Shown: positions 20,922-38,407 of the stretch, piece by piece | How the letters are laid out: every line of letters begins with the position of its first letter | Position numbering within the stretch: the first letter of the stretch is position 1 | Assembly (NCBI RefSeq): GCF_000340565.2 | Contig: NZ_CP007203.1 | Span: 5,112,807 to 5,176,806, forward strand | Source: Nodularia spumigena CCY9414 | GTDB lineage: Bacteria; Cyanobacteriota; Cyanobacteriia; Cyanobacteriales; Nostocaceae | Length of the DNA stretch: 64,000 nt | Direction: 5' to 3' | Translations under genes and position numbers: made by a program | Notes under the pieces: generated by a model | What the model saw: the letters and a program-made list of their open reading frames with translations, nothing else | Databases searched by the model: none | What the model was told of the DNA's origin: nothing

Positions 20922-21216
20922 AATCAAGTCTTGTTGCTTGCGAACAGATTATGACTATACGCTAACTAGATTTCGGATTAAAGATTGCCAAATTTTCCAC
21001 TTTGCGCTAGCACTAGTGGCGTACTAATTACAACTTAAATCTATCATGTATAATGTCCTTACCACTTAGTGACAGATTTGATACAGCGTTAAAATAAATA
21101 CATTTATTGAAAAGGTGCAAGGAATAAAACTTGTGAAGATAAAAAGTTATGCATTAGCTGATAATTCACTGATTACTGTATTGTAAAGATATCTTGCATA
21201 GTTTTCTGAATACACC
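20922..21216. promoter_or_regulatory. Spacer upstream of nrdJ
   Basis: About 295 bp of AT-rich sequence (TTTCGGATTAAAGATTGCC near 20970) must carry the nrdJ promoter on the minus strand. No NtcA-type GTA-N8-TAC site or B12-box was found by eye. Confidence 0.35.
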
Positions 21217-21399
21217 ATGCTTACAGTAGCAATAACCATAATCCGCGAAATGCGGCTGTTTTTAATTATCTGGTTAGGACAGGTGATTACCTTTGTCGGT
21301 TCTAGCATTACCGCTTTTGCTCTGGTAATGTTCTTGCGATTACCAGAAATCAGAAATACCAATGAACCAGTCAAAGCCAACTCCTTCTCAATACTGTAG
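21217..21399 (+). pseudogene. Broken MFS exporter, N-terminal plus central fragment
   Basis: The frame starts at ATG 21217 and encodes EMRLFLIIWLGQVITFVGSS, the first helix of an MFS exporter of the type often found with cyanobacterial peptide clusters. It then jumps to VMFLRLPEIRNTN, which in intact relatives belongs to the middle of the protein. It stops after 60 residues, where intact transporters have more than 400. An internal deletion and later truncation are inferred. It lies upstream of, and co-oriented with, the peptide cluster, so it may be the relic of its exporter. Confidence 0.65.
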
Positions 21400-21642: not shown

Positions 21643-21901
21643 AGAAAAAGTATTTGAACCTTTAATGCAAGGTAATAATTTTTTAACTAATACCATTGGA
21701 CAAATTATTGGTGTCGGTGCTGGCCGAGGAATGAGTCTTTTATTAGTCATTTTAGGAACTATCACCATGATTCCCACCTGCTTTGCTTATCTCTCTCCCC
21801 GCCTAAGATTAATCGAAGAAGAATTACCAGATATTGTTTTAGACACAGAAGAAAATATAATAACAATTTCTGAACCAGTTGCTTCTGCATCTTCCAACTA
21901 A
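21643..21901 (+). pseudogene. Broken MFS exporter, C-terminal fragment
   Basis: After an in-frame stop the sequence reads AEKVFEPLMQGNNFLTNTIG, then QIIGVGAGRGMSLLLVILGTI, a last transmembrane helix, and a PRLRLIEEELPD tail. These match the C-terminal end of the same MFS exporter type as the fragment at 21217-21399. The middle of the gene is missing. The longest ATG frame is 21665-21901. It ends 64 bp before the first NRPS gene. Confidence 0.65.
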
Positions 21902-21965: not shown

Positions 21966-24900
21966 ATGAACACTAAAGATAATTATTTCAACAACCAAAA
22001 GCGCGATTTACTCAAACTTATCTTAAACAAAAAAGGTATTTCTCTTAATACAGAAACAATCCCCCGTCGTTCCCACACCGAACCAGCACCCCTCTCTTTT
22101 AGTCAAGAACAACTCTGGTTTTTATATCAACTCGACCAGGGAAAAACTACTTATAATATGCCTTGTGCATTACAAATTAGTGGTAGTTTAAATATATCAG
22201 TTCTAGAACAATCAATCAAAGAAATAGTACGACGGCATGAAATTTTACGTACCAATTTTCGACAAATAGATGGTAAAAATTTACAGGTAATTAATCCAGA
22301 AGTTAATACTAACTTACGATTAGTTGATTTAGAGCATATACCAACGACTGAACAATTACCAACCGTACAGAACTTAGTTAATCAAAAAATCCAAAAAACT
22401 TTTAATTTAAGTCAAGATGTTCTATTTCAACCTACACTTTACCAACTCAACCAAAATTCCTATGTATTGCTTTTAAATATGCACCATATCATCTCCGATG
22501 GTTGGTCTGTAGGAATTTTATTGCAAGAATTATCTGCCCTTTATTCAGCCTATCTCTCAGGAGATAAATCACCTTTACCAGATTTATTGATTCAATATGC
22601 TGATTATGCCATTTGGCAAAGACAAAAATTAACGCCAGAAGTTAGAGAAAAACAACTCAATTACTGGAAACAACAATTAGCAGATGCACCACCATTATTA
22701 GAATTACCTACAGATAAACCACGTCCTCCCATGCAATCTTTTAGCGGTGGTGCTTTGTTATTTCACATTAATACTGATTTAAGTGAAAAGATTAAAGCCT
22801 TGGGTCAAAAGTCCGACGCTACGTTATTTATGATCATGTTAGCAGCTTTCGTGATTTTGCTCTATCGCTACAGTGGTCAGAATGATATTTTAGTTGGTTC
22901 TCCAATGGCTAATAGAAACCGTCAGGAAGCACAATCATTAATTGGTTATTTCGTGAATACTGTAGTTTTAAGAACGCAATTAACCGAAAATCCTAATTTT
23001 TGGGAAGTCCTCAACCGCGTGCGTAAAGTAGCTACAGATGCTCACACTTATCAAGATATACCTTATGATCAAGTAGTAGAAGCATTACAACCACAGCGTA
23101 ACCTCAGCTATAATCCTTTATTTCAAATATTGTTTGACGTTCAGCATTCCCTGACAGATAAATTAAAACTTCCAGAACTAAATTTACAAACTTTTCCGCA
23201 AGGACACTCAATCTCCAAATTTGATTTATCTTTAATCATAGAAGATACGGGTACAGAATTAATGGGTGGCTGGGAATATAGCAGCGATTTATTTACAGTG
23301 GACACCATCACCCGTTTAACAGATAATTTTCAAACTTTGTTGGCGGGAATTGTTGCAAATCCTGAAATCCCTATTCATGAATTACCGATAATTTCAGCAA
23401 ATGAAAAACAGCAGATTTTGCTAGAATGGAACAACACACAAAAAGATTATCCTGATTATTCCTATATTCATCAATTATTTACAGAACAAGCTATTAAAAC
23501 ACCCAATGCTGTAGCTGTTAGGTTTGGTAATGCAGAATTAACTTATACTGAATTAAATCAAAAAGCTAATCAATTAGCTAATTATTTAAAAACCTGTTGT
23601 GTAGCACCAGAAGTATTAGTAGGATTTTATTTAGAACGTTCTCTAGATGTCTTAATAGTCATCTTAGCAATTCTTAAAGCTGGTGGTGCATATCTGCCTT
23701 TAGATCCTCATTATCCTCAAGAAAGATTAGCAGATATTTTAGATGATTCTCAAGCATCTCTAATCTTAACCCAAGAAAGCCTATTAACATCACTACCAGA
23801 ATATTCAGGAAAAGTAATCTTATTAGATACAGACTTAACTGTTATTTCTCAGCAAAGTCTAGAAACACCAGTTAGCGCAGTTAAACCAGAAAATTTAGCT
23901 TATGTAATTTATACTTCCGGTTCTACTGGTAAACCCAAAGGGGTAATGATTACCCATCAAAATATAGTTAATCATGCCACAAGCATAATTGAAAAATATC
24001 AAGTTAATAACCATGATAGAATCTTGCAATTTTCCACTTTTATCTTTGATGTCGCAGCAGAAGAAATTTTTCCCACTTGGTTAACTGGTGCAACTTTGGT
24101 AATGCGTCCCAAAGAAATGTTTGCAAGTTTGGTAGAGTTTAACCAATTTTTGGCACAAGAAAGCTTAACAGTAATAAATCTACCTGCACCATATTGGCAA
24201 GAATGGGTATTAGAATTAGAACGAAAATCTATACAAATTCCTGATAGTTTACGCTTAGTTGTTACAGGTAGCGAACAAGTTCTAGCAGAAAAATTATTAT
24301 TATGGCAAAAATTAGTAGGAGAAAAAGTACAATGGGTAAATGCCTATGGTCCAACTGAAGCTACTATTACTGCAACAATTTATCAACTTACAGCCAATTC
24401 TCAATTAAGTGGGATAAATTCTGTATCTATTGGTAGTCCTATTGCTAATACAGAAATCTACATTCTTGATCAAAACCTTCAACCTGTTCCTATTGGTGTT
24501 TTTGGAGAATTACATATTGGTGGTGCTGGTTTAGCTAGAGGATATTTAAACCGACCAGAATTAACGCATGAAAAATTTATATCTAATCTTATTCCCACTG
24601 CAAAATCATCAAGATTATATAAAACTGGTGATTTAGCTAGGTATTTACCAGATGGCAATATCGAATTTTTAGGTCGCATTGATTATCAAGTTAAAATTCG
24701 TGGTTTCAGAATTGAGTTAGGAGAAATTGAAGCTGTTTTAGCACAACATCCTCTAGTGAAAACATCAGCAGTAATTGTTAGAGAAATCCAACTAGGAAGC
24801 AAACAAATAGTAGCTTATGTTGTAACTCAAGAAGATGCTGATATTCAAACTAATTTCCGCTCTTTTCTCCAGGAAAAATTACCCGATTATATGATTCCTG

Positions 24901-26438
24901 CTTTCTTTGTCAGATTAGCAGAATTACCGTTAACAACTACAGGAAAAATCAACCGTCCTGCTTTATCTGCGCTGCATTTAGAATTAAACCATGAAACAAA
25001 TTACATATTACCGCGCAACCCTCTTGAACAGCAAATAGCAGAAATTTGGTGTCAAGTTTTAGGATTAGAAAAAATTAGTATTGATGAAAATTTCTTTGAA
25101 TTGGGTGGACATTCTTTAGCAACTATGCAGGTTATATCTAGATTACAAGAAACTTTACAGGTAGATTTACCATTAAAATATTTATTTGCAGAACCAACAA
25201 TAGCCAGATTAGGGACAGTAATTGATCAATTATTACAAAAGGAAAATACTACCGATACTATTGATGATTTTTATGCTGATGCTATTTTAGACTCAACAAT
25301 TCAACCGCAAAATCTGCCTAAACTATTTATTAGTCAACCTCAAAATATCTTTTTAACTGGTGCGACTGGTTTTTTAGGTGTTCATTTACTACACGAACTC
25401 TTAGAAAAAACATCAGCCAATATCTACTGTTTATTGCGGGCTAAAAATGCTTTAGATGGGAGGGGTAAGTTAAAAGATAAACTATGTTTTTATCAACTAG
25501 GGAAGGATGAGTATAGTAGTAGAATCATTCCTATAATTGGAGATTTAGGGGAAAATATATTAGGTCTATCTGTACAAGAATTTCAAGATTTAGCTAGTAA
25601 AATAGATGTAATTTATCATAATGGTGCTTCTGTGAATTTGATTTATCCCTATTCAGTTTTAAAAGCACCTAATGTCTTGGGTACTCAGGAAATTTTGCGT
25701 TTAGCAAGTCACATTAAGGTTAAACCAGTACATTTTGTTTCTACTACTTCTGTTTTCTGTCCAGAAAGTTACGGTGAAGATGAAATGTTATTAGAATCAG
25801 ACTCTCTGGAATATTATCAAGGATTGGTGGGTGGATATCGTCAAAGTAAATGGGTAGCAGAAAAGTTGGTAATGCAGGCACGCGATCGCGGCCTTCCTGT
25901 TACGATATACAGAGCAGCCAGAATTATCGGTCATAGTCAAATCGGTATCTGTAATACTGAAGACATATTTTGCAGAATTATTAAGACTTGTATCCAACTC
26001 GGAAAAACCCCGGACGTTGACTGGGAAGATAATTTAACACCTGTAGATTATGTCAGTCAAGCAATAGTGTATTTGTCTCAACAACAGGAATCTACAGGTA
26101 AAGCATTTCATCTGTTAAACCCGCAAATCAGCCGCATGAATGACTTATTTAATTTTATGGGTGAATGGGGCTATCCATTGCCACAAATTTCATACGCTAA
26201 ATGGTATTCAGAATTAATGAATATGGTACAAACATCAGCAGATAGAAACTTGGAAGTTATGTCTGCATTTTTCCCAGCAATTCAACCCGCAAAAATTCAA
26301 GAACCAAAATTTAATGATCAAAATACTATGAATGGATTGTTGAATACAAATATTAGTTGTTCTCCTATTGAGGAAAAATTACTGCAAAGATATTTTCAAT
26401 ACTTTCTCAATAGCGGCTTTTTAGTATCCCCTGAATAA
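21966..26438 (+). CDS. NRPS, C-A-T-reductase (terminal module, aeruginosin type)
   Basis: The 1490-residue single-module synthetase has four domains. The condensation domain (about 40-480) opens with PLSFSQEQLWFLYQ and has the intact active site HHIISDGWS (173-181). The adenylation domain (about 500-980) has A3 YTSGSTGKPKG at 649 and FDVAAEE at 694. The carrier protein has LGGHS with phosphopantetheine Ser1050. The C-terminal thioester reductase (about 1125-1490) has a Rossmann motif GATGFLG (1132) and catalytic Tyr1291-x3-Lys1295 (GGYRQSKW). Reading the specificity positions by eye gives D-V-E-N-V-T-A-I-T. The acidic E fits a basic substrate such as Arg, but this is not decisive. The reductase would release an aldehyde or alcohol, as in argininal or argininol aeruginosins and spumigins. 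It is first in gene order but must act last. Confidence 0.93.
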   Translation: MNTKDNYFNNQKRDLLKLILNKKGISLNTETIPRRSHTEPAPLSFSQEQLWFLYQLDQGKTTYNMPCALQISGSLNISVLEQSIKEIVRRHEILRTNFRQIDGKNLQVINPEVNTNLRLVDLEHIPTTEQLPTVQNLVNQKIQKTFNLSQDVLFQPTLYQLNQNSYVLLLNMHHIISDGWSVGILLQELSALYSAYLSGDKSPLPDLLIQYADYAIWQRQKLTPEVREKQLNYWKQQLADAPPLLELPTDKPRPPMQSFSGGALLFHINTDLSEKIKALGQKSDATLFMIMLAAFVILLYRYSGQNDILVGSPMANRNRQEAQSLIGYFVNTVVLRTQLTENPNFWEVLNRVRKVATDAHTYQDIPYDQVVEALQPQRNLSYNPLFQILFDVQHSLTDKLKLPELNLQTFPQGHSISKFDLSLIIEDTGTELMGGWEYSSDLFTVDTITRLTDNFQTLLAGIVANPEIPIHELPIISANEKQQILLEWNNTQKDYPDYSYIHQLFTEQAIKTPNAVAVRFGNAELTYTELNQKANQLANYLKTCCVAPEVLVGFYLERSLDVLIVILAILKAGGAYLPLDPHYPQERLADILDDSQASLILTQESLLTSLPEYSGKVILLDTDLTVISQQSLETPVSAVKPENLAYVIYTSGSTGKPKGVMITHQNIVNHATSIIEKYQVNNHDRILQFSTFIFDVAAEEIFPTWLTGATLVMRPKEMFASLVEFNQFLAQESLTVINLPAPYWQEWVLELERKSIQIPDSLRLVVTGSEQVLAEKLLLWQKLVGEKVQWVNAYGPTEATITATIYQLTANSQLSGINSVSIGSPIANTEIYILDQNLQPVPIGVFGELHIGGAGLARGYLNRPELTHEKFISNLIPTAKSSRLYKTGDLARYLPDGNIEFLGRIDYQVKIRGFRIELGEIEAVLAQHPLVKTSAVIVREIQLGSKQIVAYVVTQEDADIQTNFRSFLQEKLPDYMIPAFFVRLAELPLTTTGKINRPALSALHLELNHETNYILPRNPLEQQIAEIWCQVLGLEKISIDENFFELGGHSLATMQVISRLQETLQVDLPLKYLFAEPTIARLGTVIDQLLQKENTTDTIDDFYADAILDSTIQPQNLPKLFISQPQNIFLTGATGFLGVHLLHELLEKTSANIYCLLRAKNALDGRGKLKDKLCFYQLGKDEYSSRIIPIIGDLGENILGLSVQEFQDLASKIDVIYHNGASVNLIYPYSVLKAPNVLGTQEILRLASHIKVKPVHFVSTTSVFCPESYGEDEMLLESDSLEYYQGLVGGYRQSKWVAEKLVMQARDRGLPVTIYRAARIIGHSQIGICNTEDIFCRIIKTCIQLGKTPDVDWEDNLTPVDYVSQAIVYLSQQQESTGKAFHLLNPQISRMNDLFNFMGEWGYPLPQISYAKWYSELMNMVQTSADRNLEVMSAFFPAIQPAKIQEPKFNDQNTMNGLLNTNISCSPIEEKLLQRYFQYFLNSGFLVSPE

Positions 26439-26503
26439 TTCGGGCATAGCAAAAGCATCTAATTTGAGATTTTTTTTACTGAATTAGGAACATTCTTACA
26501 AAC

Positions 26504-29500
26504 ATGATTACAAATAATACTCGTTTTTATCCTTTATCTCACGGACAGCAAGCCCTTTGGTTTTTACACCAAAACGACCCGGAGAATACAGCATATAATC
26601 TATTTATGACACTCCGTTTAAGTTCAGAACTAGATATAAAGTCTCTCCAGCGAACTTGGCAGAAAATTTACGATCGCCATCCCATTCTCCGCACCACTTA
26701 CACCACCCATCAAGGTCAACCAGTTCAGCAAATCCACCCAAACCAAGCAGTTAAAATCCCAGTTATAGATGCAACAAAATGGAGTGAGGAGGAACTGAAG
26801 GCAGAAATCTTGATTGAGGTTGATCGTCCCTTTGATTTAGAACAAGGTCCCATCCAAAGATTAATACTATTTACCCGCACACCAACAGAAAATATTTTTG
26901 TAATAGCCATGCACCACATCGCATCTGATATGTGGTCTTATGATGTCATGCTTTCAGAGATGTTAGTGTTATATGAAAACGAGACAGAACATACTCTACC
27001 AGAAAGTTTACCCTACACAGATTTTGTGCATTGGCAATCAGAAATGCTGTCTAGTTCCGAAGGGGAAAAGTGGTGGAAATATTGGCAGCAGAAATTAAAT
27101 GGCAAACCAACAATTTTAAATTTGCCTTTAGATAAACCCCGTCCTCCAGTACCAACTTATAACGGAATTTCTCATACATTTAAAATTAATGAACAACTAA
27201 CAACTGATTTAAAATCTTTAGCTGCCAAAGAAGGTGTTACCCCATTTACAATTTTACTTTCTGCCTTCCAAGTATTTCTACATCGCTACTCTGGACAAAA
27301 AGAAATTCTCATTGGTGTTCCTTTAGCTGGTCGGACTGGAAAGCAGTTTAAACAAACTGTTGGTTACTGTGCTAACCCAGTAGTTTTACAGGCAGATTTG
27401 ATCAATAATTATGTATTTAAAGAACTGCTGATCTATAACCGTCGTCAATTATTTACGGCTTTAAAACATCAATATTATCCTTTTACTCTATTAGTAAAAA
27501 ATCTAGAAATTCCCCGTGATTCTAGTTACTTTCCTTTGTTTCAGGTGTCTTTCACTTCCCAGAAACACCGTTGGTATGAGCCGGACGATAAAAAATTATA
27601 TTTAGAAAAGGGAAAAAAGCTGCACATAGAACCATACTTCATTGGACAAAGAGGAGCAGCGTTTGATTTAGATTTAGTATTGATTGAAACAGGCGAAACT
27701 CTGGAGTTATGTTGGCAATATAACACCGATTTATTTACAGATGCTACCATCCAACGAATGATGGCTAATTTTCAAGTTTTATTAGCAGGGATAATTGCCA
27801 ATCCAGAACAGCATATTTCTCAATTGCCCATCCTCACAGATGTAGAACAAAATCAAATATTAAAAGAGTGGAATCAGACTCAAAGAGATTATCCCCAAGA
27901 TAAATGTATTCATCATTTATTTGAGGAACAGGTAAAACAGAATCCTGATGCTGTTGCGCTAATTTATGAAGATGAAAAACTCACCTATCAAGAATTAAAT
28001 AAAAAAGCCAATCAACTCTCGCATTATTTACAACATTTAGGGGTAAAACCAGAAACTTTAGTCGGGATTTGTGTAGAGCGATCACTCGAACTCATTATTA
28101 GTATACTAGCAGTCCTCAAAGCTGGTGGCGCTTATGTCCCACTTGATCCCGCCTATCCCCAAGAAAGATTAAACTTCATTCTGCAAGATGCCCAACTACC
28201 CATTATCCTCACACAGCAACACTTCATCACCAAACTATTACCTACATCTGCAAAAATCATCTGTACAGATATAGATATTCATTCCCAACCTAGTGATAAC
28301 CCCTCCAGTTCGGTTAAATCTGATAACTTAGCTTATGTGATTTATACCTCCGGTTCTACGGGTAAACCAAAAGGGGTTATGGTTGCTCATCGGGGCTTAT
28401 GTAATTTAGCCACAGCACAAATTAAACTATTTGAAGTCAGACCAGATAGCTCCGTCCTCCAGTTTGCATCTATCAGTTTTGACGCTTCCATTTCCGAAAT
28501 AGTCATGGCTATTTGTGCCGGTGCAAAGTTATGTTTAGCAACAAGGGACTCACTGCAACCTGGACAACCTCTACAGAAACTATTGCAAATACAAAATATT
28601 AGCCATGTCACCCTAGTACCATCAGCCCTAGCAGCTTTGTCACCCCAAGACCTGCCTAACCTAAAAAATCTTATCGTTGCTGGTGAACCATGTCCAGGAG
28701 ATTTAGCCGCTTCTTGGGCTGTGGGACGGCAGTTTTTTAACGCCTATGGACCAACAGAAGCCACAGTGTGCGCTACCGTCTTATTGTATCAACCAGGAAT
28801 GAAAATTTCTATTGGTCAGGCGATCGCTCACACTCAAATTTATATTCTTGATCACTATCTTCAACCCGTCCCCATCGGTGTACCAGGAGAACTGCACATT
28901 GCTGGAGTAGGATTAGCGCGGGGATACCTCAATCAGCCTGATTTAACTGCCCAAAAATTTATTCCCAATCCTTTTAGTAATGACACTAACTCTCGTCTCT
29001 ACAAAACCGGTGATTTAGGGCGCTACTTACCAGATGGTAACATCGAATTTCTAGGTCGCATTGACAATCAAGTGAAAATTCGTGGTTTTCGGATAGAGTT
29101 AGAAGAAATTGAAACCACCATTGTCCAACATCCGCAAATACAACAAGCGATCGCCATTGTTAGGGAAGATATACCGGGTACTAAACGCCTCGTTGCTTAT
29201 ATTGTCCCCCATCAACAACATTCTCTCAATAGCAATGAAATATGGGAATACCTAAAACACAAGTTACCAGAGTATATGATCCCGGCGATCTTCGTGTTTT
29301 TAGACTCCCTACCCCTCACCCCCAATGGCAAAATAGATCGAAAATCCCTTCCTATTCCCTCAACAGTCCATCAATCAGACAACTTTACTGCACCACGCAA
29401 TCCCATAGAAACAGCCTTAGTAGAAATTTGGCAGCAAGTTTTACGGGTAGAAAAAATTGGTATTCACGATAACTTCTTTGCCCTTGGTGGAGACTCGATT

Positions 29501-31060
29501 ATTAGTATTCAAATCATCGATCAGTCTCATCAACAAGGCATACAAATAACCAGTAAACAGTTATTTCAATACCAAACCATAGCCCAACTAGCCAACATAG
29601 TTACTATCAACAAAACCATCTCACCCCTACAAAGTTTAGTCACAGGAGAAATACCCCTAACTCCCAGCCAGCATTGGTTTTTTGAACAAAACTCTCCCCA
29701 ACCCCATTATTTTAATCAAACAATGATGCTAGAAGTATCAGCAGATACTCAACCAGCATTATTAGAACAGGCAATTAAAACCCTTCTAATCCATCATGAT
29801 GCCCTAAGAATGCGGTTTATCAAACATGAATCGGGATGGCAACAAATTAATTCTGATCAATATGAACCTGTACCTTTTCAAGTGTTTGACTTCTCAGCCT
29901 TACCAGCCACAGAACAAACCCAGTCTATAGAAACCATCGCCCAAGAGTTGCAATCCAGCTTAAATTTAACCACAGGTCCAGTCATTCGAGTAGCACTGTT
30001 TCAGCTAGGGACTGAGAAAAATGGCAGACTATTACTAATTTGCCAACATCTAGTTACAGATGCCATCTCACTCAAGATTCTCCTAGCAGATTTAGTCACA
30101 GCCTACAAACAACTGCAAAGAGAAGAAACTATCCAACTACCACCCAAAACCACATCTTTTAAAGATTGGGCTATTCGTCAACAAAAATACGGTCAGTCCC
30201 AGACTCTCGAACAAGAATTAAAGCATTGGTTAGCCCAGTACAGTGCGGATATTTCACCCTTACCCTTAGATTATCCCCTCAAACCAGGACTAAATCTGGA
30301 AGGTAGCACTCAAGCTGTAGGAGTTTCCTTAACACCAGCAGAAACCCATAATCTTTTACAAGCAGTACCACAAGCTTACAGCACCACAACTGAGGAAATC
30401 TTTCTCACAGCTTTAGTTCAGACTATCACCAGTTGGACAGGTTCTCATTCTCTATTTATTGATTTGGAGGGACACAGACAACCAGAACTCTTTGCAAATG
30501 TAGATTTATCCCGTACCGTGGGCTGGTTTACTATCATCTATCCGGCGCTGCTGCAATTAAATAATACTGATGATTGCGGAGTAGCTATAAAAACAATCAA
30601 GGAACAAATACGACAAATTCCCCATCATGGGATAGGTTTTAGTAACCTCCGTTACTATAGCCAAAATCCAGATATCCGCCAAAAACTGCAATCATTACCC
30701 AAACCACAAATATCTTTTTACCATTGGGGAACATTTGAGCAAATCCAGGCAGAGTCCATTTTACTGGGACTAGCTCCAGAGAATGTCGGCTATATGTTTA
30801 GTCCCCAAGCAGAACGCAGCTATTTACTAAATGTAGTCAGTGCAGTAGTTGAAAACCAATTACAAATTAGTTGGCTGTACAGTGGGGATATTCATCAGCA
30901 AAGAACCATTGAAAGTTTAGCTCACAACTACATAACCTATTTAAGAAAATTAATTCAGCACTGCCAATCACCAGAAGCAGGAGGATATACACCTGCGGAT
31001 TTCCCTGATGCTGATTTGAGTCAAGACGAACTTGACAATTTATTATCTGAGCTTGAATAA
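26504..31060 (+). CDS. aerB: NRPS, C-A-T-epimerase (loading/extension module, aeruginosin type)
   Basis: The 1518-residue protein starts with a condensation domain (PLSHGQQALWFLHQ; active site HHIASDMWS at 137) of the kind seen in lipo-initiated cyanobacterial lines. An adenylation domain follows (YTSGSTGKPKG at 614; FDASISE at 659), then a carrier protein with LGGDS (Ser998), the variant that precedes epimerases. The C-terminal epimerization domain (about 1030-1490) has EGHRQPE, DLSRTVGWFT and GIGFSNLRY. The epimerase HH motif is altered to Gln-His (1181-1182), keeping the second His and Asp1186. Specificity residues read D-A-S-L-I-A-A-V-C, close to Tyr/Phe-type codes, so a D-Tyr or D-homotyrosine residue is expected. 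The N-terminal C domain probably attaches an acyl or hydroxyphenyl-lactate-like starter. The symbol follows position in known aer clusters. Confidence 0.9.
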   Translation: MITNNTRFYPLSHGQQALWFLHQNDPENTAYNLFMTLRLSSELDIKSLQRTWQKIYDRHPILRTTYTTHQGQPVQQIHPNQAVKIPVIDATKWSEEELKAEILIEVDRPFDLEQGPIQRLILFTRTPTENIFVIAMHHIASDMWSYDVMLSEMLVLYENETEHTLPESLPYTDFVHWQSEMLSSSEGEKWWKYWQQKLNGKPTILNLPLDKPRPPVPTYNGISHTFKINEQLTTDLKSLAAKEGVTPFTILLSAFQVFLHRYSGQKEILIGVPLAGRTGKQFKQTVGYCANPVVLQADLINNYVFKELLIYNRRQLFTALKHQYYPFTLLVKNLEIPRDSSYFPLFQVSFTSQKHRWYEPDDKKLYLEKGKKLHIEPYFIGQRGAAFDLDLVLIETGETLELCWQYNTDLFTDATIQRMMANFQVLLAGIIANPEQHISQLPILTDVEQNQILKEWNQTQRDYPQDKCIHHLFEEQVKQNPDAVALIYEDEKLTYQELNKKANQLSHYLQHLGVKPETLVGICVERSLELIISILAVLKAGGAYVPLDPAYPQERLNFILQDAQLPIILTQQHFITKLLPTSAKIICTDIDIHSQPSDNPSSSVKSDNLAYVIYTSGSTGKPKGVMVAHRGLCNLATAQIKLFEVRPDSSVLQFASISFDASISEIVMAICAGAKLCLATRDSLQPGQPLQKLLQIQNISHVTLVPSALAALSPQDLPNLKNLIVAGEPCPGDLAASWAVGRQFFNAYGPTEATVCATVLLYQPGMKISIGQAIAHTQIYILDHYLQPVPIGVPGELHIAGVGLARGYLNQPDLTAQKFIPNPFSNDTNSRLYKTGDLGRYLPDGNIEFLGRIDNQVKIRGFRIELEEIETTIVQHPQIQQAIAIVREDIPGTKRLVAYIVPHQQHSLNSNEIWEYLKHKLPEYMIPAIFVFLDSLPLTPNGKIDRKSLPIPSTVHQSDNFTAPRNPIETALVEIWQQVLRVEKIGIHDNFFALGGDSIISIQIIDQSHQQGIQITSKQLFQYQTIAQLANIVTINKTISPLQSLVTGEIPLTPSQHWFFEQNSPQPHYFNQTMMLEVSADTQPALLEQAIKTLLIHHDALRMRFIKHESGWQQINSDQYEPVPFQVFDFSALPATEQTQSIETIAQELQSSLNLTTGPVIRVALFQLGTEKNGRLLLICQHLVTDAISLKILLADLVTAYKQLQREETIQLPPKTTSFKDWAIRQQKYGQSQTLEQELKHWLAQYSADISPLPLDYPLKPGLNLEGSTQAVGVSLTPAETHNLLQAVPQAYSTTTEEIFLTALVQTITSWTGSHSLFIDLEGHRQPELFANVDLSRTVGWFTIIYPALLQLNNTDDCGVAIKTIKEQIRQIPHHGIGFSNLRYYSQNPDIRQKLQSLPKPQISFYHWGTFEQIQAESILLGLAPENVGYMFSPQAERSYLLNVVSAVVENQLQISWLYSGDIHQQRTIESLAHNYITYLRKLIQHCQSPEAGGYTPADFPDADLSQDELDNLLSELE

Positions 31061-31167
31061 TTTACTCATTTCCTGGTATTAATATTATGGCAGCCAAGCA
31101 GCCAGGTATTAAGATTGAATATTTTACTAAAAATTAACAAAAAATTAATCTCACAGGTAGCTGATTT

Positions 31168-31764
31168 ATGTTGAAGTTTTCAATGGAATTTAACTACTCC
31201 GTTCCGTCATCCAATATCTTAAGTGTTGGCACATTGGGACCTAGTGGAACGAGCAGCGAAGAAGCCTTAAATTATATTAAAAAGCAAATCCAACCCAAGG
31301 ATATAGAAATCACAGTTAAGCTATTTGATGAATTTTTAGCTTTACGAGAAGCATTACGAAACAATGAAGTAGATTTAGCCCTAGTTCCCCATGCTTACGA
31401 TAAGATTAACGAGTTTTATATGGAACCTAACTTTGATTTAGGTTTTATATTTGTCTATCCAACTCCTGTTTATGGATTAGCTAAGAAAAAAGATCAAGAA
31501 GTCAAATTTATTGGTAGTAAGATTGTCACTCATCCTGCACCATTACCCTTACTATCACAACTTTTACCGACTGGATATAATCAACAAGAAATTACCGTAG
31601 AATTAGCCAACTCTACCAGTGCGGCTGCTCAACAAGTACATCAAGGTTTAGCTGACTTAGCTATCACCAATGACAAAGCACGGCAATCCTATGATTTAGA
31701 ATTTGTGGCAATTTATGGGACAATACCCATGAGTTGGTCTATTTTTTATAAAAAACCTATTTAG
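31168..31764 (+). CDS. aerD: AerD/BacA-like prephenate decarboxylase
   Basis: The 198-residue protein resembles the BacA/AerD family, which decarboxylates prephenate without aromatisation to give dihydro-4-hydroxyphenylpyruvate, the first step to anticapsin (bacilysin) or to Choi (aeruginosins). It carries the prephenate-dehydratase-derived core: VGTLGPSGTSSEEALNYIKK, ALVPHAYDKIN, FVYPTPVYGLA and LANSTSAAAQQVHQGLADLAITN. Its length equals the family (about 200). The start could be 31168 or the internal ATG at 31183, as no strong ribosome-binding site distinguishes them. It is followed after 3 bp by the AerE-like gene, so the two are translationally linked. Confidence 0.85.
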   Translation: MLKFSMEFNYSVPSSNILSVGTLGPSGTSSEEALNYIKKQIQPKDIEITVKLFDEFLALREALRNNEVDLALVPHAYDKINEFYMEPNFDLGFIFVYPTPVYGLAKKKDQEVKFIGSKIVTHPAPLPLLSQLLPTGYNQQEITVELANSTSAAAQQVHQGLADLAITNDKARQSYDLEFVAIYGTIPMSWSIFYKKPI

Positions 31765-31767
31765 TTC

Positions 31768-32403
31768 ATGTCTAAATTTTTTCCCCAACATCAAAACATC
31801 AAAGTTAGTGATGTAGATTTAGCGGCTTTTCAGTGCCAAGACATTGTTTTTCAATTTGCCTACATTGCTCCGGGTGCTAGATTTGCACTACATCAACATC
31901 CAGAAAGTCAAATGGGAATGGTAATTTCTGGTAATTTGGAAATGAATGTTAATGGTAAAAAAGAATTTTTGCAACCATTACAACAAGTCTATACTGCTGG
32001 AGCTAATGTTCCTCATGGTTCAATTAATTATTCTGGGGAATCTATCTTTTGTTTCGATGTCAAACGACTCACTAATTTATCGGGTCAGGAAGCGGATTTT
32101 TTTGACCTCAAACCCGACAAGGATGAAGTTACCAATTTACCTATTCAGTTAGCAGTGGGTTCTTGGTTTAAAACTATGATCTTGCAAATTCCCCCTGGTG
32201 AAAAAATCCCCACTCAGCAATCTGATAGTGAAGAAATAGGCATTATTCTGAATGGTCAAATGGTGATTAATGTAGGAGGAGAACAACAACTAGTCAAAAA
32301 AAGTGAAATTTATTATGCTCCTGTTAATGTAACTCATTCAGGTTACAATTCAACATCGGAACCAGTCACATTAATTAAAATTTTGCTACCACACCATCCT
32401 TAA
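31768..32403 (+). CDS. aerE: AerE/BacB-like bicupin isomerase
   Basis: The 211-residue double cupin resembles BacB/AerE, metal-dependent isomerases that move a double bond in dihydro-hydroxyphenylpyruvate. The first cupin shows GARFALHQHPESQMGMV and PHGSINYSGE with His residues for a metal; the second shows GEKIPTQQSDSEEIGIIL and VTHSGYN. The second cupin seems to have fewer His ligands (QQSDSE where H-x-H is usual), so the N-terminal cupin is likely the main metal site. It starts 3 bp after aerD and 23 bp before the SDR, forming a tight operon segment. Confidence 0.85.
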   Translation: MSKFFPQHQNIKVSDVDLAAFQCQDIVFQFAYIAPGARFALHQHPESQMGMVISGNLEMNVNGKKEFLQPLQQVYTAGANVPHGSINYSGESIFCFDVKRLTNLSGQEADFFDLKPDKDEVTNLPIQLAVGSWFKTMILQIPPGEKIPTQQSDSEEIGIILNGQMVINVGGEQQLVKKSEIYYAPVNVTHSGYNSTSEPVTLIKILLPHHP

Positions 32404-32426
32404 ACTGCTGCATAGAGGCTTATTTC

Positions 32427-33227
32427 ATGGATTTAGGATTAAAAGGAAAAGTTGCTTTAGTGACAGGAGCGAGTGCTGGTATAGGTCTAGCTGTAGCTCA
32501 AACACTAGCACAGGAAGGATGTAAATTAGTTATTTGTGGACGTGGATTAGAAAAAATTCAACAAACTGAAAGATTACTAATTCAAGAAAATGCCAATTTA
32601 GAAATATTGAGTTTAGTAGCTGATGTTCACAAAGCTGAGGATTCCCAAAATTTAGTAAATGCCGCTTTAAATAAATTTGGAAAAATTGATATTTTAATCA
32701 ATAATTCTGAAGGTGCGTCCTTTGCTAGTGATGCAGTAGAAACATTATCTGATGATGATTGGCGGCTGGTATTTGAAGCTAAATTAATGGGTTATATCCG
32801 CATGACTAATTTAGTTTTACCAGGGATGAAAAATCAAAATTGGGGGAGGATTATTAATATTGTGGGGACATCGGGAAAAGAACCTTCACCAAGGTTAATT
32901 AAATCAGGTGTGGCTAATGCGGCTTTAATGAATTTCACAAAATCAGTTTCTAGTCAAACTGCCAAATTTAACGTTTTGATGACTACAGTTAATCCTGGTT
33001 TAATTGACACACCTAGACATCGCCAGTATTTAGAAATTGCTGCACAGGAGGAAAATCAATCAGTTGATGTAATTAAATCTCGCATTGCTGGTAAAATTCC
33101 TGTTGGTCGTTTGGGTTCATCTGATGAAGTAGCCAATTTAGTAGTATTCTTAGCTTCAGAATGTGCTAGTTACATTACTGGGGTGACAATTTCTATAGAT
33201 GGAGGATTATCTGTTTCTGCTTTTTAA
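32427..33227 (+). CDS. aerF: SDR-family reductase of the Choi branch (AerF-like)
   Basis: The 266-residue short-chain dehydrogenase has the cofactor motif TGASAGIGLAVAQ and a C-terminal YITGVTISIDGG. The usual catalytic Tyr-x3-Lys is absent: the region reads SGVANAALMNFTKS, with Ser and Asn where Tyr and Lys are expected. This feature also occurs in a subgroup of SDRs that includes bacilysin-type conjugate reductases such as BacG (my recollection). Hence it may reduce a C=C bond by hydride addition rather than a ketone. It follows aerD-aerE directly, which supports the role of reducing the Choi precursor. Confidence 0.8.
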   Translation: MDLGLKGKVALVTGASAGIGLAVAQTLAQEGCKLVICGRGLEKIQQTERLLIQENANLEILSLVADVHKAEDSQNLVNAALNKFGKIDILINNSEGASFASDAVETLSDDDWRLVFEAKLMGYIRMTNLVLPGMKNQNWGRIINIVGTSGKEPSPRLIKSGVANAALMNFTKSVSSQTAKFNVLMTTVNPGLIDTPRHRQYLEIAAQEENQSVDVIKSRIAGKIPVGRLGSSDEVANLVVFLASECASYITGVTISIDGGLSVSAF

Positions 33228-33326
33228 TAAAGGCTCTATGGCTTCCTTTAAATGATATATTTGCTGATGAGTAGTAAATTTAGTGTCTGTACATAATCCA
33301 TAAGTCAACAGGTTGGGTAAGGGTCA

Positions 33327-36300
33327 ATGGTAGTTGCACAAAAGGCGAGTAACAAAAATATTGAAGCTATTTATCCCTTGTCACCAATGCAGCAGGGGAT
33401 GTTGTTTCATAGTTTATATAATCCTGAATCCAAGGCTTATTTATCACAAATTTCCATTAGTTTAAAAGGTAATTTAGATATATTAGCTTTTGAGCAAGCT
33501 TGGCGCAAGGTAATAGAACGGCATCCAGCTTTGCGGACTGTGTTTGTGTGGAAAAACCGCAAACAACCTTTACAAGTAGTACAAAAACAAGTTAATGTTC
33601 CTTGGGTAAATTTAGATTGGCGATCTTTATCTTCTGAAGAAAAAAAGAGTCAATTAGATAGTTTTCGTCAATCTGACCGTGAGAAATATTTTGCACTGGA
33701 TAAAGCTCCTTTATTGCGATTTACTCTGATCAGAATGACTGATGAGAGTTATGATTTTATTTTTAGTGTGCATCATATTCTGGCTGATGGTTGGAGTTTA
33801 TCGGTATTAGAACAGGAGGTTTGGCTGTTTTATCAGGCGATATGTAAGGGTGAAGAGTTGAATTTAGTAACTCCTCGTCCTTATCGAGATTATATTGCTT
33901 GGTTGCAACAGCAAGATTTAGGAGAAGCTGAGAAATATTGGCGAAAAACTTTACAAGGGTTTAGTTCACCTACACCTCTAGTTGTGGATAAGGTGAAAGG
34001 AAAAAATGAAAATCCCAGTAAAACTTATGATCATCAATATTTTTCTCTATCTAAAGAAGCAACAGCAACTATCAGGAATTTTGCTCAAACAAATTATTTA
34101 ACGGTTTTCACTTTAGTACAAGCTGCTTGGGGAATATTATTAAGTCGTTATAGTGGGGAGTCTGATGTAGTTTTTGGTGCAACTGTGGCGGGTCGTCCTG
34201 CGACTTTATCGGGTGTACAATCAATGGTAGGGTTGTTTGTGAATACTTTACCTGTGCGATCGCAACTTCCCCACACAGAAATATTACCCTGGTTAAAACA
34301 GCTACAAGAAAAGCAACTTGAACGGGAAGAATACGCATATAGTCCACTGGTAGAAATTCAAGCCTGGAGCGATTTGCAGCCTGGTGAATCTCTATTTGAA
34401 AGTTTTGTGGTGTTTGAAAATTTACCAGTTTATAAAGAACTGTCAGGAATTGATGATTTACAAATTGGTTCAACGAGAGATACTGGAAACGCTGATTATC
34501 CTTTGACCTTGATGGTGATTCCTGAAGAGGAATTGCAGCTAACATTGATTTATGCCAGCGATCGCTTTTCTGAAGATACCATCAAGAGAATAGCCGGTCA
34601 TCTGCAAACTATTTTACTGGGAATTACGGCTAATCCTCATGGTTTACCCGGAGAGTTACCACTGTTAACTTCGGAAGAAGAGAGATTAATACTCAGAGAT
34701 TGGAATCAAACGGAAGCAGAAAATCCTCTGTCAGCGAGTCTACATGAATTAGTTATTAAACAAGCAGAAAAAACACCTGATGCTGTAGCTTTGGTATTTA
34801 ATCAACAACAATTAACTTATCAGGAATTGAGCGATCGCGCAAATCAATTAGCTCATTATTTGCAAAAATTAGGAGTAGGTGCAGATGTACCTGTAGGTTT
34901 GTGTTTAGAGAGAGGTTTAGAAGTAGCGATCGCTATTTTAGCAATTCTCAAAGCTGGTGGCGTTTGTGTACCTCTTGATCCTAGCTATCCCCCAGAAAGG
35001 TTAGAGTTAATTTTACAAGATACTCAAGTCCCTGTTCTGATTACTCAAACAAATTTACAAGCTTTATTAAAATGTGATTTTCCTCATCATCGGTTGATTT
35101 TAGAACAGGAATGGACAGAAATTAGTTTAGAATCAAAAACTAACCCAACTACTCAAATTACATCAGAAAACTTAGCCTATATAGTTTATAGTTCCGGTTC
35201 TACAGGTAAACCCAAAGGAATTGCAGTTCCTCATTATTCCATTACAAATTTAATTGAACATCACTTAGCAAAAATGGCTTGTGGTGTAGGTGTTTTACAA
35301 TTTGCACCGTTGAGTTTTGATGTCAGTTATCACGAAATAGCCGCCGCTTGGGGTACTGGTGGAACTCTCTACATGATTCCTGAAGAAACCCGTTTAGATT
35401 TAGATAAGTTAGTGCAATTATGGGCAAATCATCCTATTCAAAAAGTCATTCTTCCTGTGAGTTTATTACAACAATTAGCGGAAGTTTATGGACAACAACC
35501 AGAACTTTTACAAAATTTACGAGAAATTTGTGCGGCCGGTGAACAATTACAAATTACTCAACCAATGATAGAGTTATTTAAACAGTTGCCAAATTGTCGT
35601 TTGTATAATTTCTATGGACCAACAGAAGCAGATTTAGTCACAGCTTACGCATTTGACCAAAATCCAGAAAAATGGCCAATTTATGCACCAATTGGTCAAG
35701 CGGCTGTCAATGTCAAAGTTTATATTTTGGACAAGAATTTGCAACCTGTACCCGTAGGAATTGTAGGAGAATTATACGTTAGTGGTTATGGTTTAGCCAG
35801 AGGATATTTTAACCGTTCAGAGTTAACAAATGAGAAATTTATCTCTAATCCTTTTGGTCAATTTCCCTATCATCGTCTGTACAAAACTGGAGATTTAGTC
35901 AGATATTTACCAGATGGAAATATTGAGTTTTTAGGACGAATAGATGATGTGGTAAAAATTCGCGGTTATCGGGTTGATTTAGGTGAATTAGAAGCAATTT
36001 TAAGTAAACATCCTCAAATTAGCCAAGCAGTTACCACTACTCATGGAGAAAATGCTAAAGAAAAATTTCTAGCGGCGTATTTTATTCCTGTAGTTGGACA
36101 AACGGTTACTGCTTCAGAGTTGAGAAAATTCTTAGCTGCACAATTGCCAGATTATATGATTCCTTCCGCATTTGTACAAATGGAATCTTTTCCTTTGAGT
36201 CCCAATGGCAAAGTTAACCGCAAAGTTTTACCAATTCCTAATCATGACAGACCAGAGTTAAATCAAAACTACATCGCACCACAAAATCCAACCCAGGAAT

Positions 36301-36599
36301 TATTAGCAGAAATTTGGTCAGAAGTGTTAGGAATAGAACGTATAGGAATAGATGATAATTTCTTTTATTTAGGAGGACATTCGCTCAAAGCCATACAATT
36401 AATTGGTCAGATTCATAAAACTTACGAATTAGATATTACTGTCCGTCATTTGTTTAATTATCCCACTATCGGAGAATTAGCAACTGTACTGGGAGAATTA
36501 GTAGGTGGAGAACAAATTATTGATGAAATTTCGAGAACTATCCAAGAAATTTCTCAACTTTCACCGGAACAAGTGCAAGCAATGTTAGCACAACAGTAA
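33327..36599 (+). CDS. aerG: NRPS, C-A-T (Choi-incorporating module, aeruginosin type)
   Basis: The 1090-residue one-module synthetase begins IYPLSPMQQGMLFHSL, the signature of a condensation domain that accepts a D-configured upstream residue, matching the epimerase of the previous protein. The active site is HHILADGWS (149-157). The adenylation domain has YSSGSTGKPKG at 621 and FDVSYHE at 664; specificity residues read D-V-H-I-C-A-F-L-V, which I could not match to a proteinogenic residue. By position it should activate the bicyclic amino acid Choi. The carrier protein ends with LGGHS (Ser1019) and a short C-terminal helix (SQLSPEQVQAMLAQQ) that may dock with the next protein. Confidence 0.88.
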   Translation: MVVAQKASNKNIEAIYPLSPMQQGMLFHSLYNPESKAYLSQISISLKGNLDILAFEQAWRKVIERHPALRTVFVWKNRKQPLQVVQKQVNVPWVNLDWRSLSSEEKKSQLDSFRQSDREKYFALDKAPLLRFTLIRMTDESYDFIFSVHHILADGWSLSVLEQEVWLFYQAICKGEELNLVTPRPYRDYIAWLQQQDLGEAEKYWRKTLQGFSSPTPLVVDKVKGKNENPSKTYDHQYFSLSKEATATIRNFAQTNYLTVFTLVQAAWGILLSRYSGESDVVFGATVAGRPATLSGVQSMVGLFVNTLPVRSQLPHTEILPWLKQLQEKQLEREEYAYSPLVEIQAWSDLQPGESLFESFVVFENLPVYKELSGIDDLQIGSTRDTGNADYPLTLMVIPEEELQLTLIYASDRFSEDTIKRIAGHLQTILLGITANPHGLPGELPLLTSEEERLILRDWNQTEAENPLSASLHELVIKQAEKTPDAVALVFNQQQLTYQELSDRANQLAHYLQKLGVGADVPVGLCLERGLEVAIAILAILKAGGVCVPLDPSYPPERLELILQDTQVPVLITQTNLQALLKCDFPHHRLILEQEWTEISLESKTNPTTQITSENLAYIVYSSGSTGKPKGIAVPHYSITNLIEHHLAKMACGVGVLQFAPLSFDVSYHEIAAAWGTGGTLYMIPEETRLDLDKLVQLWANHPIQKVILPVSLLQQLAEVYGQQPELLQNLREICAAGEQLQITQPMIELFKQLPNCRLYNFYGPTEADLVTAYAFDQNPEKWPIYAPIGQAAVNVKVYILDKNLQPVPVGIVGELYVSGYGLARGYFNRSELTNEKFISNPFGQFPYHRLYKTGDLVRYLPDGNIEFLGRIDDVVKIRGYRVDLGELEAILSKHPQISQAVTTTHGENAKEKFLAAYFIPVVGQTVTASELRKFLAAQLPDYMIPSAFVQMESFPLSPNGKVNRKVLPIPNHDRPELNQNYIAPQNPTQELLAEIWSEVLGIERIGIDDNFFYLGGHSLKAIQLIGQIHKTYELDITVRHLFNYPTIGELATVLGELVGGEQIIDEISRTIQEISQLSPEQVQAMLAQQ

Positions 36600-36623
36600 A
36601 TTAATATCTCAGGAGATAAAAAA

Positions 36624-37583
36624 ATGAAAATTGCTTTTTTTAGTTATCCATTTGGTTATGCTGAACCTCCCAAGATTGGTTCATTAGCCATAATTGCTTA
36701 TCAATTAGGACTGCGTTTAGCTGCTGCTAATAATGAAGTTCTATTCTATGGTTCTAAAGTTCCCCACTCCCTGGAGTTAGAATACTCTGAGGATGGTATT
36801 ACTTATCGGGGAATACCTGAATTTTGCCCAGATAAAATCATATCTACTATTTTAGAAAAATTGGATGAATGGAAAATTTCTCATTCTCTACGTCCTTTCT
36901 GTCATTCTATTCTCTATTATTTCGGGTTTTACTGGCAAGTTGCTAGGAATTTAAAAGCTAAAAAATGTGAAATTGTACATATTATTGCTGTTTCACAAAC
37001 TGTTAGTTTAGTGCGCTTTTTTAATCCTCAAGCCAAAATTGTTTTACACGCACAGACTGAGTGGTTAAGCTATTACGATCAGGCAATGATGGAAAAGCAA
37101 GTTAATCAAGCTGATCTAGTAATTGGGTGTAGCAATTATGTAACTGATAGAATTCGTATTGATCAAGGTAAATATTTATCACAATTAAAAAATATAATTT
37201 CTCCCACTGCTGCTAATTCCGTATCTTTTTTGGGAGCAGTTAATTACCAAGATTTAATTAAATATTATCAAGAAACAGATATTTTTATATTTCCATCTGT
37301 GTGGAATGAACCATTTGGAATGCCAATTGTAGAAGCTATGTCTGTGGAGTTACCCGTGATTGCAACTGATGGGGGTGCTTTCCCAGAATTAGTAGATGAA
37401 GGAAAAACCGGTTTGTTGGTTGAAAGGGGTAATTCTCATGCTTTAGCGGAGGCGATTTTGTGTTTATTGAAAGATGAAAATCTCTGTCAAGAAATGGGTA
37501 AAGCCGGTAGACAAAAAGTTGTAGAAAATTTTACTTGGGAGCGCATTAGTGAAAAACTTTTTAAGTTATATCAAGATTTATAG
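36624..37583 (+). CDS. aerI: GT4-type glycosyltransferase with probable internal deletion
   Basis: The 319-residue protein has the GT-B N-terminal domain (MKIAFFSYPFGYAEPPKIGS; VHIIAVSQTVSL) and the last part of the donor domain with the E-x7-E motif (NEPFGMPIVEA) and FPELVDEGKTGLLV. Between NYVTDRIRI and DQGKYLSQLKN about 80-100 residues that normally include the NGVD and VGR...EKG segments seem missing, without a frame break. Intact relatives are near 400 residues. A deletion around 37150-37170 is inferred and would damage the sugar-nucleotide site. Aeruginosin clusters commonly contain a glycosyltransferase (AerI), so the symbol is positional. It is preceded by a good ribosome-binding site (aggaga before the ATG at 36624). 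Confidence 0.75.
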   Translation: MKIAFFSYPFGYAEPPKIGSLAIIAYQLGLRLAAANNEVLFYGSKVPHSLELEYSEDGITYRGIPEFCPDKIISTILEKLDEWKISHSLRPFCHSILYYFGFYWQVARNLKAKKCEIVHIIAVSQTVSLVRFFNPQAKIVLHAQTEWLSYYDQAMMEKQVNQADLVIGCSNYVTDRIRIDQGKYLSQLKNIISPTAANSVSFLGAVNYQDLIKYYQETDIFIFPSVWNEPFGMPIVEAMSVELPVIATDGGAFPELVDEGKTGLLVERGNSHALAEAILCLLKDENLCQEMGKAGRQKVVENFTWERISEKLFKLYQDL

Positions 37584-37630
37584 CCGCTTTCTAGAAGTAG
37601 AAAATAATGTATCCTTTACAAGGAAAAGCA

Positions 37631-38407
37631 ATGAAAAATGACCTTTTTGATTTAACGGGTAAAGTAGCTATTATTACAGGTGCAGCTAGGGGAATTGGCA
37701 AAGCGATCGCCCAAGGATTAGCCGATGCAGGTGTAAAAGTAGTAGTTGCCGATATTAAACAGGCTGAAGCAGAAGCAACAGTGGAAATCATTCAAGATGC
37801 TGGTGGAGAAGCCGTAGCATTTCATACTGATGTAACTAAGCGTGGAGATTGCCAAAATTTAATTCAACAAACTGTTAATTATTACAACCGTTTAGATATT
37901 TTGGTTTGTAATGCGGGAATTGATATTCTCAAACCTTTAATTGCTTTAGAAGAAGATGAATGGGATGCAATTATTAATGTTGATTTGAAGGGGTATTTTA
38001 ATTGTGTTCAGTTAGCAGCTAAACAAATGATTGCACAAGGTACAGGTGGTTCAATTATTATGAACTCCTCCATAGCAGGTGTGATTGGGATTGCTGATTC
38101 TGCGGCTTATACTGCGGCTAAAGGGGGTGTAAATCAGTTAGTTAAATCCCTTGCTGTAGAATGGGCAAATTATAACATTCGTGTGAATGCTTTTGCCCCT
38201 GGATATATCAATAATATTATGGAAGGAACAGAACAATTCCGTTTACCTTCAGAACAAGATCAAGAACATTTAAAAAGAGTTATTCCCATGAAAAGAAGAG
38301 GTGAACCACAAGAATTAGTTGGTCCAGTAATTTTCCTAGCTTCTGAAGCTGCGGCCTATGTTACAGGTACAATTTTAATGGTAGATGGTGGTTACAGTGC
38401 GATTTAA
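37631..38407 (+). CDS. SDR-family oxidoreductase, FabG-like
   Basis: The start at 37631 is chosen because aaggaaa lies 6-7 bases upstream; an ATG eight codons earlier (37607) lacks a site. The 258-residue protein has VAIITGAARGIGKAIAQG, the NAGI motif, catalytic Ser in MNSSIAGV and an intact Tyr-x3-Lys (AYTAAKGGV), with a C-terminal YVTGTILMVDGG. It should reduce a carbonyl with NAD(P)H. Possible tasks are the remaining ketone reduction in Choi synthesis or reduction of a released aldehyde to an alcohol; the sequence does not decide. It is last in the cluster, 47 bp after the glycosyltransferase. Confidence 0.85.
   Translation: MKNDLFDLTGKVAIITGAARGIGKAIAQGLADAGVKVVVADIKQAEAEATVEIIQDAGGEAVAFHTDVTKRGDCQNLIQQTVNYYNRLDILVCNAGIDILKPLIALEEDEWDAIINVDLKGYFNCVQLAAKQMIAQGTGGSIIMNSSIAGVIGIADSAAYTAAKGGVNQLVKSLAVEWANYNIRVNAFAPGYINNIMEGTEQFRLPSEQDQEHLKRVIPMKRRGEPQELVGPVIFLASEAAAYVTGTILMVDGGYSAI

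What the first reader, a model, noticed from the sequence alone, without database searches (positions are those of the whole stretch)
21966..38407. Aeruginosin-type cluster with reductive chain release and non-colinear gene order
Seen: three one-module NRPS genes (C-A-T-R, C-A-T-E, C-A-T), AerD/BacA-like, AerE/BacB-like and SDR genes, a GT4 and a second SDR. Known: aerD-E-F type genes supply Choi, the diagnostic residue of aeruginosins; terminal reductases release aldehydes or alcohols. Inferred: the order of action is C-A-T-E, then the D-accepting C-A-T, then C-A-T-R, so the last-acting module is encoded first. No AerA-like loading PKS and no halogenase are present. The expected product is acyl or aryl starter, D-Tyr/Hty-like residue, Choi, then a reduced basic residue (argininal or argininol), a protease-inhibitor type.
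Basis: partly seen in the sequence, partly recalled or inferred. Interest (0 to 1): 0.75.

Follow-up and report, generated by a model that had tools for sequence, protein, structure and literature searches.

The report
Known aeruginosin cluster with decayed epimerase
This is the already published gene cluster with which a brackish-water cyanobacterium makes the protease inhibitors called aeruginosins; what is new is that two of its enzymes look broken, which would explain two oddities of the published molecules: an amino acid of unflipped handedness and a missing sugar.

Summary
The published product is short fatty acid, L-Tyr, L-Choi, argininal/argininol: the predicted D-Tyr is contradicted, the acyl starter confirmed.

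[quoted passage not shown] The sequence suggests a cause for both. AerB's epimerase domain is full-length but altered in three motifs (QHLVTDAISL, EGHRQP, FYHWGT); 41 of 164 otherwise conserved positions differ, against 39 of 634 in six other segments (T domain: 5 of 32). The next condensation domain still groups with D-accepting ones. AerI lacks 93-98 residues, including a GRxSPEKG motif present in 11 of 11 relatives compared. My searches found neither point in print.

The catalytic His and Glu survive, so loss of epimerase activity is inferred. Inactive epimerases before L-accepting DCL-clade domains are known in glycopeptide synthetases (PMC1894796). The cluster is known; the explanation is new and testable.

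The parts
21966..26438 (+). aerM: NRPS C-A-T-R, last-acting module; A-domain code DVENVGAIT (published as Arg); reductase 25344-26423
   Evidence: (TIGR01746 338.4 bits, cut-off 213.35); R-domain motifs present; PMC3765200 Table 2
26504..31060 (+). aerB: NRPS C-A-T-E with a starter-type C domain, first-acting module; A-domain code DASTIAAVC (published as Tyr)
   Evidence: PMC3765200 (ATP-PPi assay for L-Tyr)
29612..31003 (+). degenerate epimerase domain of AerB (residues 1037-1500); altered motifs at 30044-30073 (QHLVTDAISL), 30467-30484 (EGHRQP), 30716-30733 (FYHWGT)
31168..31764 (+). aerD: prephenate decarboxylase-like, Choi pathway
31768..32403 (+). aerE: bicupin, BacB-like, Choi pathway
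32427..33227 (+). aerF: SDR, Choi pathway
33327..36599 (+). aerG: NRPS C-A-T, Choi module, code DVHICAFLV; C domain 33363-34691 lies in the clade of C domains that follow E domains (DCL type)
   Evidence: PMC3765200 Table 2
36624..37583 (+). aerI remnant: GT4 glycosyltransferase with an internal in-frame deletion of about 95 codons (junction about 37158-37166)
37607..38407 (+). SDR, ORF1 of PMC3765200 (my working label AerK in the scripts is recalled)

Best explanation
This is the published aer operon of N. spumigena CCY9414. AerB's starter C domain joins a short fatty acyl group (C2-C10) to L-Tyr. AerD, AerE and AerF make Choi, AerG adds it, AerM adds Arg, and AerM's reductase domain releases the chain as argininal, part of which becomes argininol (published, or domain logic). 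New here, inferred from sequence: AerB's epimerase domain is a folded pseudoenzyme that no longer flips Tyr, so acyl-L-Tyr is handed on; AerG's condensation domain, by descent a D-donor (DCL) type, takes the L donor. AerI is a deletion remnant without its conserved GRxSPEKG segment, so this strain leaves Choi without its pentose.
For: Identity: same scaffold length, gene order, AerE and AerF lengths (211, 266 aa) and A-domain codes as PMC3765200. E domain: 41 of 164 conserved columns altered, against 39 of 634 pooled over AerB-A, AerG-C, AerG-A, AerD, AerE and AerF (Fisher P 8e-11, without correction for descent). HHxxxDGxSW is found in 44 of 48 E domains, an EGHGR-type motif in 47 of 48, F[ND]Y in 47 of 48; only the window lacks all three. 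The nearest relative L009 shares part of the decay and groups with it. Product L-Tyr by acid hydrolysis and chiral derivatisation (PMC3765200, work on strain AV1). AerG C groups with C domains that follow E. AerI: 93-98 residues missing against 11 relatives, 11 of 11 with GR[IV]SPEKG; no intact copy was found in the genome. The paper names only CH307, CH311 and P38 as pentosylating strains.
Against: The His (H1182) and Glu (E1322) named as the active-site pair are retained. The E domain is full-length; its root-to-tip distance (0.76) lies inside the range of the others (0.53-1.14); it scores 690 bits with an E-domain HMM, though that HMM was built with it included. Another E domain, L051, has 26 of 173 conserved columns changed with intact motifs, so the count alone does not prove loss. 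The T domain also shows raised change (5 of 32; not different from E, Fisher P 0.36). Stereochemistry was measured in AV1, the sequence is from CCY9414. The paper detects aerI by PCR in all its Baltic N. spumigena strains although only three strains are pentosylated; whether the others carry the deletion is unknown. No other N. spumigena genome was reached, so an assembly error in aerI cannot be wholly excluded.
Confidence: 0.8

Rival explanations
1. The epimerase domain is still active and makes a D/L mixture, but AerG's condensation domain draws off only the L form, so the stereochemistry is set by the C-domain gate and not by E-domain loss.
For: His1182 and Glu1322 are retained; the E domain is full-length and still recognised by an E-domain HMM.
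Against: AerG C lies in the D-accepting clade and shows no marked loss of conserved positions (11 of 118), whereas E shows 41 of 164. The E changes hit three conserved motifs.
Confidence: 0.17
2. One reading: a new cluster making a D-Tyr/Hty-containing aeruginosin aldehyde.
For: C-A-T-E followed by a DCL-clade C domain is the textbook layout for a D residue.
Against: The cluster and product are published, with L-Tyr (PMC3765200); E motifs are degenerate.
Confidence: 0.03
3. AerI is a working, shortened glycosyltransferase, and CCY9414 lacks pentosides for another reason, such as no sugar donor.
For: The frame is open, and the EPFGMPIVEA segment of the C-terminal half is kept. The paper finds aerI by PCR in all its Baltic strains, although only three of its 16 strains have pentosides.
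Against: The missing block holds the GRxSPEKG segment kept in 11 of 11 relatives compared.
Confidence: 0.06

Closest known systems
aer cluster of Nodularia spumigena CCY9414 (Fewer et al. 2013, PMC3765200), aeruginosins NAL/NOL
   Same: The same locus: scaffold length, gene order, A-domain codes and two short upstream ORFs agree.
   Different: The paper calls the epimerase 'apparently functional' and lists AerI as 133 aa without remark in the parts read; here the E core is degenerate and AerI is a 319-aa internally deleted frame.
   Same: AerB, AerD-F, AerG and AerM homologs.
   Different: Published as loading through AerA. In L065 and L072 the E motifs are intact and the AerM-like gene follows the ORF1-like SDR gene instead of standing first.
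aer cluster on plasmid1 of Cylindrospermum sp. NIES-4074 (L009)
   Same: AerB 58% identical, C domain in the same clade, and a partly degenerate E domain (HHLVIDRVSL, FDYMGN).
   Different: A-domain code DFWNIGMVH, a Thr-like code by recall; second motif kept as ESHGRE; no GT4 or AerM homolog listed in the 20.6 kb seen.
Glycopeptide NRPS modules with inactive E domains (complestatin, A47934; Rausch et al. 2007, PMC1894796, section 26 read)
   Same: E domains thought inactive, followed by a DCL-clade C domain that works on an L donor.
   Different: Actinobacterial glycopeptide synthetases; an unrelated instance.
Linear gramicidin synthetase LgrA inactive E domain (PMC8150014, passage in a figure legend)
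   Same: A retained but inactive E domain.
   Different: Different synthetase; passage read only.

Membership tests
Aeruginosin biosynthetic cluster | AerD, AerE, AerF Choi genes | tested here: met
Aeruginosin biosynthetic cluster | AerG C-A-T with Choi-type A-domain code | tested here: met
   DVHICAFLV, as published for Choi (PMC3765200 Table 2); no A-domain phylogeny run
Aeruginosin biosynthetic cluster | AerB C-A-T-E | tested here: met
   domain order met, E core degenerate
Aeruginosin biosynthetic cluster | Choi in the product | not testable with these tools
   published for AV1, CCY9414 and CH307 (PMC3765200 Table 3)
Functional NRPS epimerase domain | HHxxxDGxSW, EGHGRE, FNYLGQ motifs | tested here: not met
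   second His and Glu retained
DCL condensation domain (AerG) | groups with C domains that follow E domains | tested here: met
   five of five other such domains of this genome that were in the tree fall in its clade; one FastTree tree, midpoint root, no support values shown, no named reference sequences
DCL condensation domain (AerG) | D-specific donor site | not testable with these tools
   published L-Tyr product argues against it
Starter C domain (AerB) | position at N-terminus, separate clade | tested here: inconclusive
   own clade with L009, no reference starter domains in the tree; PMC3765200 places it with NosA/McnA
Thioester reductase domain (AerM) | TIGR01746 and SDR motifs | tested here: met
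GT4 glycosyltransferase AerI | whole two-lobed protein with GRxSPEKG | tested here: not met

The most novel reading that the evidence does not exclude
AerB of Nodularia (and partly its Cylindrospermum relative) carries an epimerase pseudoenzyme kept as a scaffold or docking platform, and a condensation domain of D-accepting descent has come to take an L donor. This would be a second, cyanobacterial origin of the inactive-E plus DCL-turned-LCL state known from glycopeptide synthetases, and would explain the published L-Tyr. A separate lesion in aerI would explain the lost pentose.
Probability: 0.72. Interest if true: 0.5.

Novelty: already known. Interest (0 to 1): 0.38.

Why it matters
The cluster itself is ordinary and published. 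If the two lesions are real, two unexplained points of the 2013 paper, of which PMC10143770 repeats the missing glycosylation and PMC5128752 the L-Tyr (passages), get a genetic cause that single assays can test. The case also gives a small, three-module system in which to ask how a condensation domain changes its stereo-preference, which Rausch et al. 2007 left open. It also shows that an E-domain model still scores this domain as an E domain, so automatic annotation may predict the wrong stereochemistry.

Tried and rejected
Rejected: a new cluster (it is published); the D-Tyr prediction; a marked decay of AerG's C domain (13 of 141 conserved columns, 11 of 118); an intact AerI copy elsewhere in the genome (the best hits are the two halves at aerI, the next a 34% GT4 match). 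Rfam found nothing in the window at gathering thresholds. A first automatic reading of the AerB A-domain code was off by one position and was corrected; the relatives' fourth code position depends on the alignment and is not relied on. Plasmid searches with AerI, the E domain and aerB gave no closer relative. A paper search for motif numbering in GrsA gave nothing. Not done: structure prediction and fold search, judged unable to decide activity; A-domain phylogeny.

Rows dropped: three C domains that had slipped into the E-domain set. In one search the AerG rows of L051 (no AerG listed for it) and L019 (truncated) are wrong picks; they were left in, and change which columns count as conserved. 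The tree left out the nine loci L011-L019 (L013 duplicates a genome that was kept; not all the others are otherwise represented) and used six of the eleven E domains found. Of 69 other genomes with an aerI DNA match, 12 were fetched, all AerD-bearing. One of these (L112, G126) has its frame interrupted and was left out of the alignment, so 11 were compared; the frame of L116 ends early. The AerI protein search scored only 5 candidates in each genome listed and found no relative at E 1e-60, which is why DNA was used.

Full report
WHAT IT IS. The window lies in a genome of one 5,462,271-base contig. That is the scaffold length given for Nodularia spumigena CCY9414 in PMC3610870 (start of abstract in a listing) and PMC3765200 (methods). 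Fewer et al. 2013 (PMC3765200; abstract, introduction, results, discussion and part of the methods read) describe its aer cluster as one operon; Table 1 lists AerM, AerB, AerD, AerE, AerF, AerG, AerI and an oxidoreductase. The eight frames found here follow that order; AerE (211 aa) and AerF (266 aa) have the published lengths. The A-domain codes read here, DVENVGAIT (AerM), DASTIAAVC (AerB) and DVHICAFLV (AerG), equal the first nine positions of the published codes for Arg, Tyr and Choi. Two upstream ORFs of 60 and 78 aa also match Table 1. Other published lengths differ from the frames seen here: AerB 1451 against 1518, AerM 1469 against 1490, AerD 196 against 198, AerG 1093 against 1090, AerI 133 against 319, ORF1 259 against 266.

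OBSERVATION. The Choi genes are supported by PDB relatives for AerE and AerF; AerD has none. AerD matches with E at or below 1e-60 occur in 27 of 388 genomes of the order, own genome included (48 of 388 at E 0.001, the weak ones mostly longer frames that look like ordinary prephenate dehydratases), and at E 1e-30 or better in 34 of 217 of the family. So the cluster kind is widespread.

HOW IT WORKS. Published: hexanoyl (C2-C10)-L-Tyr-L-Choi-argininal/argininol; L-Tyr activation by AerB's A domain in vitro; pentose on Choi in 3 of 16 strains, named as CH307, CH311 and P38 (the held text of Table 3 loses empty cells). [quoted passage not shown] It gives no cause in the parts I read.

THE EPIMERASE. 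Aligned with other E domains, the window's core is altered in three conserved motifs: QHLVTDAISL for HHxxxDGxSW, EGHRQP for EGHGRE, FYHWGT for FNYLGQ. In 48 E domains in hand (window included; five others from the same genome, the rest from other cyanobacterial genomes, some closely alike), the first motif is canonical in 44 (not in the window, L009, L147, L148), an EGHGR type is present in 47 and F[ND]Y in 47, the exact FNYLGQ in 45 (not in the window, L009, L156); the window alone lacks all three. PDB relatives PvdL and TycB carry the canonical forms. Leave-one-out over 39 non-redundant E domains: 24 of 115 conserved columns changed in the window; the next highest are 15 of 121 (a distant domain of the same genome with intact HHxxxDG) and 13 of 115 (L009). 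Control over other parts of the same cluster, 34 rows each: E 41 of 164; AerB-A 9 of 131; AerB-T 5 of 32; AerG-C 11 of 118; AerG-A 11 of 146; AerD 2 of 77; AerE 2 of 40; AerF 4 of 122. E against the pooled others without T (39 of 634): Fisher P 8e-11; against T alone P 0.36. The test ignores shared descent. L009 (Cylindrospermum NIES-4074 plasmid) shows 31 of 164 in E and 1 to 10 changes in each other segment. L051 shows 26 of 173 in E with its motifs intact, so a high count does not by itself mean loss. L147/L148, whose AerD, AerF and AerG are among the closest seen, have only the first His changed in these motifs (QHLVVDGVSW). The tree, shown without support values, groups the window with L009, then with L147/L148, which suggests stepwise decay.

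Against a simple 'dead' verdict: the second His and the Glu, named as the active-site pair in PMC7551626 (passage; second His also in PMC3897469, passage), are retained; the window's root-to-tip distance, 0.76, is inside the range of 0.53-1.14, though its own branch (0.44) is longer than its sister's (0.33); and the domain scores 690 bits with an E-domain HMM that was built with it included. I read this as a folded pseudoenzyme. That residues equivalent to the lost Asn-Tyr and Arg matter for catalysis in GrsA/TycA is recalled, not from a call.

THE NEXT CONDENSATION DOMAIN. In a tree of C domains from this genome and chosen relatives, AerG C falls with the C domains that follow E domains, five of five others of this genome that were in the tree (in L077, L078, L079 twice, L080), and with the AerG C domains of relatives: the DCL type (definition in PMC1894796, passages). 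L077 and L078 are taken as spumigin and nodulapeptin from their distances to aer in PMC3765200. The published L-Tyr product then means a DCL-clade domain taking an L donor. Rausch et al. 2007 (section 26 read) describe the same state in glycopeptide synthetases with E domains thought inactive. This is therefore a new instance, not a new principle.

AERI. The intact homolog of G339 finds 39 matches in the whole genome; the two best are two halves at aerI (query 1-176 and 276-412), the next a 34% GT4 match. Against 11 relatives from AerD-bearing genomes, 93-98 residues are missing, and with them GR[IV]SPEKG, present in 11 of 11. The paper lists AerI as 133 aa. PMC10143770 (passages) repeats that the gene is present without glycosylation of NAL2. 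PMC7150779 (passages) reports aerI absent or incomplete in CENA596 and the cluster otherwise nearly the same in CCY9414 and UHCC 0039. The 2013 paper detects aerI by PCR in all its Baltic N. spumigena strains; whether those carry the deletion is not known. I found no report of the CCY9414 deletion.

LITERATURE LIMITS. Searches, and passages of PMC10143770, PMC10744761, PMC5853447, PMC7150779, PMC8609519 and PMC5128752, show no mention of the degenerate E motifs or the aerI deletion in this strain. Other papers in those listings were not opened for this point, supplements were not readable, and the library holds open-licence papers only.

VERDICT.

Noticed in passing
window 17526-20927 (-): B12-dependent ribonucleotide reductase interrupted by an intein with a LAGLIDADG domain (Pfam Intein_splicing, LAGLIDADG_3, RNR-II_ins_dom).
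   Followed up: partly
window 21217-21399 and 21665-21901 (+): Two short ORFs (60 and 78 aa) of the lengths that PMC3765200 Table 1 lists as MFS-1 similar; no Pfam hit at E 0.05. Possibly remnants of a transporter gene just upstream of aerM.
   Followed up: partly
L112 (G126), also in L062: The aerI homolog of another aer-bearing genome is split into frames of 186 and 235 aa that abut at one codon in the same frame, so apparently by a stop: perhaps a second, independent loss of AerI.
   Followed up: no
L009, plasmid1 of Cylindrospermum sp. NIES-4074: aer cluster on a plasmid with an AerB C domain like the window's, partly degenerate E domain and A-domain code DFWNIGMVH; no AerM or GT4 homolog listed in the 20.6 kb seen.
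   Followed up: partly
L147, L148 (G421, G422): Clusters with close AerD/F/G relatives have the order D-E-F-G-B-SDR, different again from the window, and E domains with QHLVVDGVSW.
   Followed up: no
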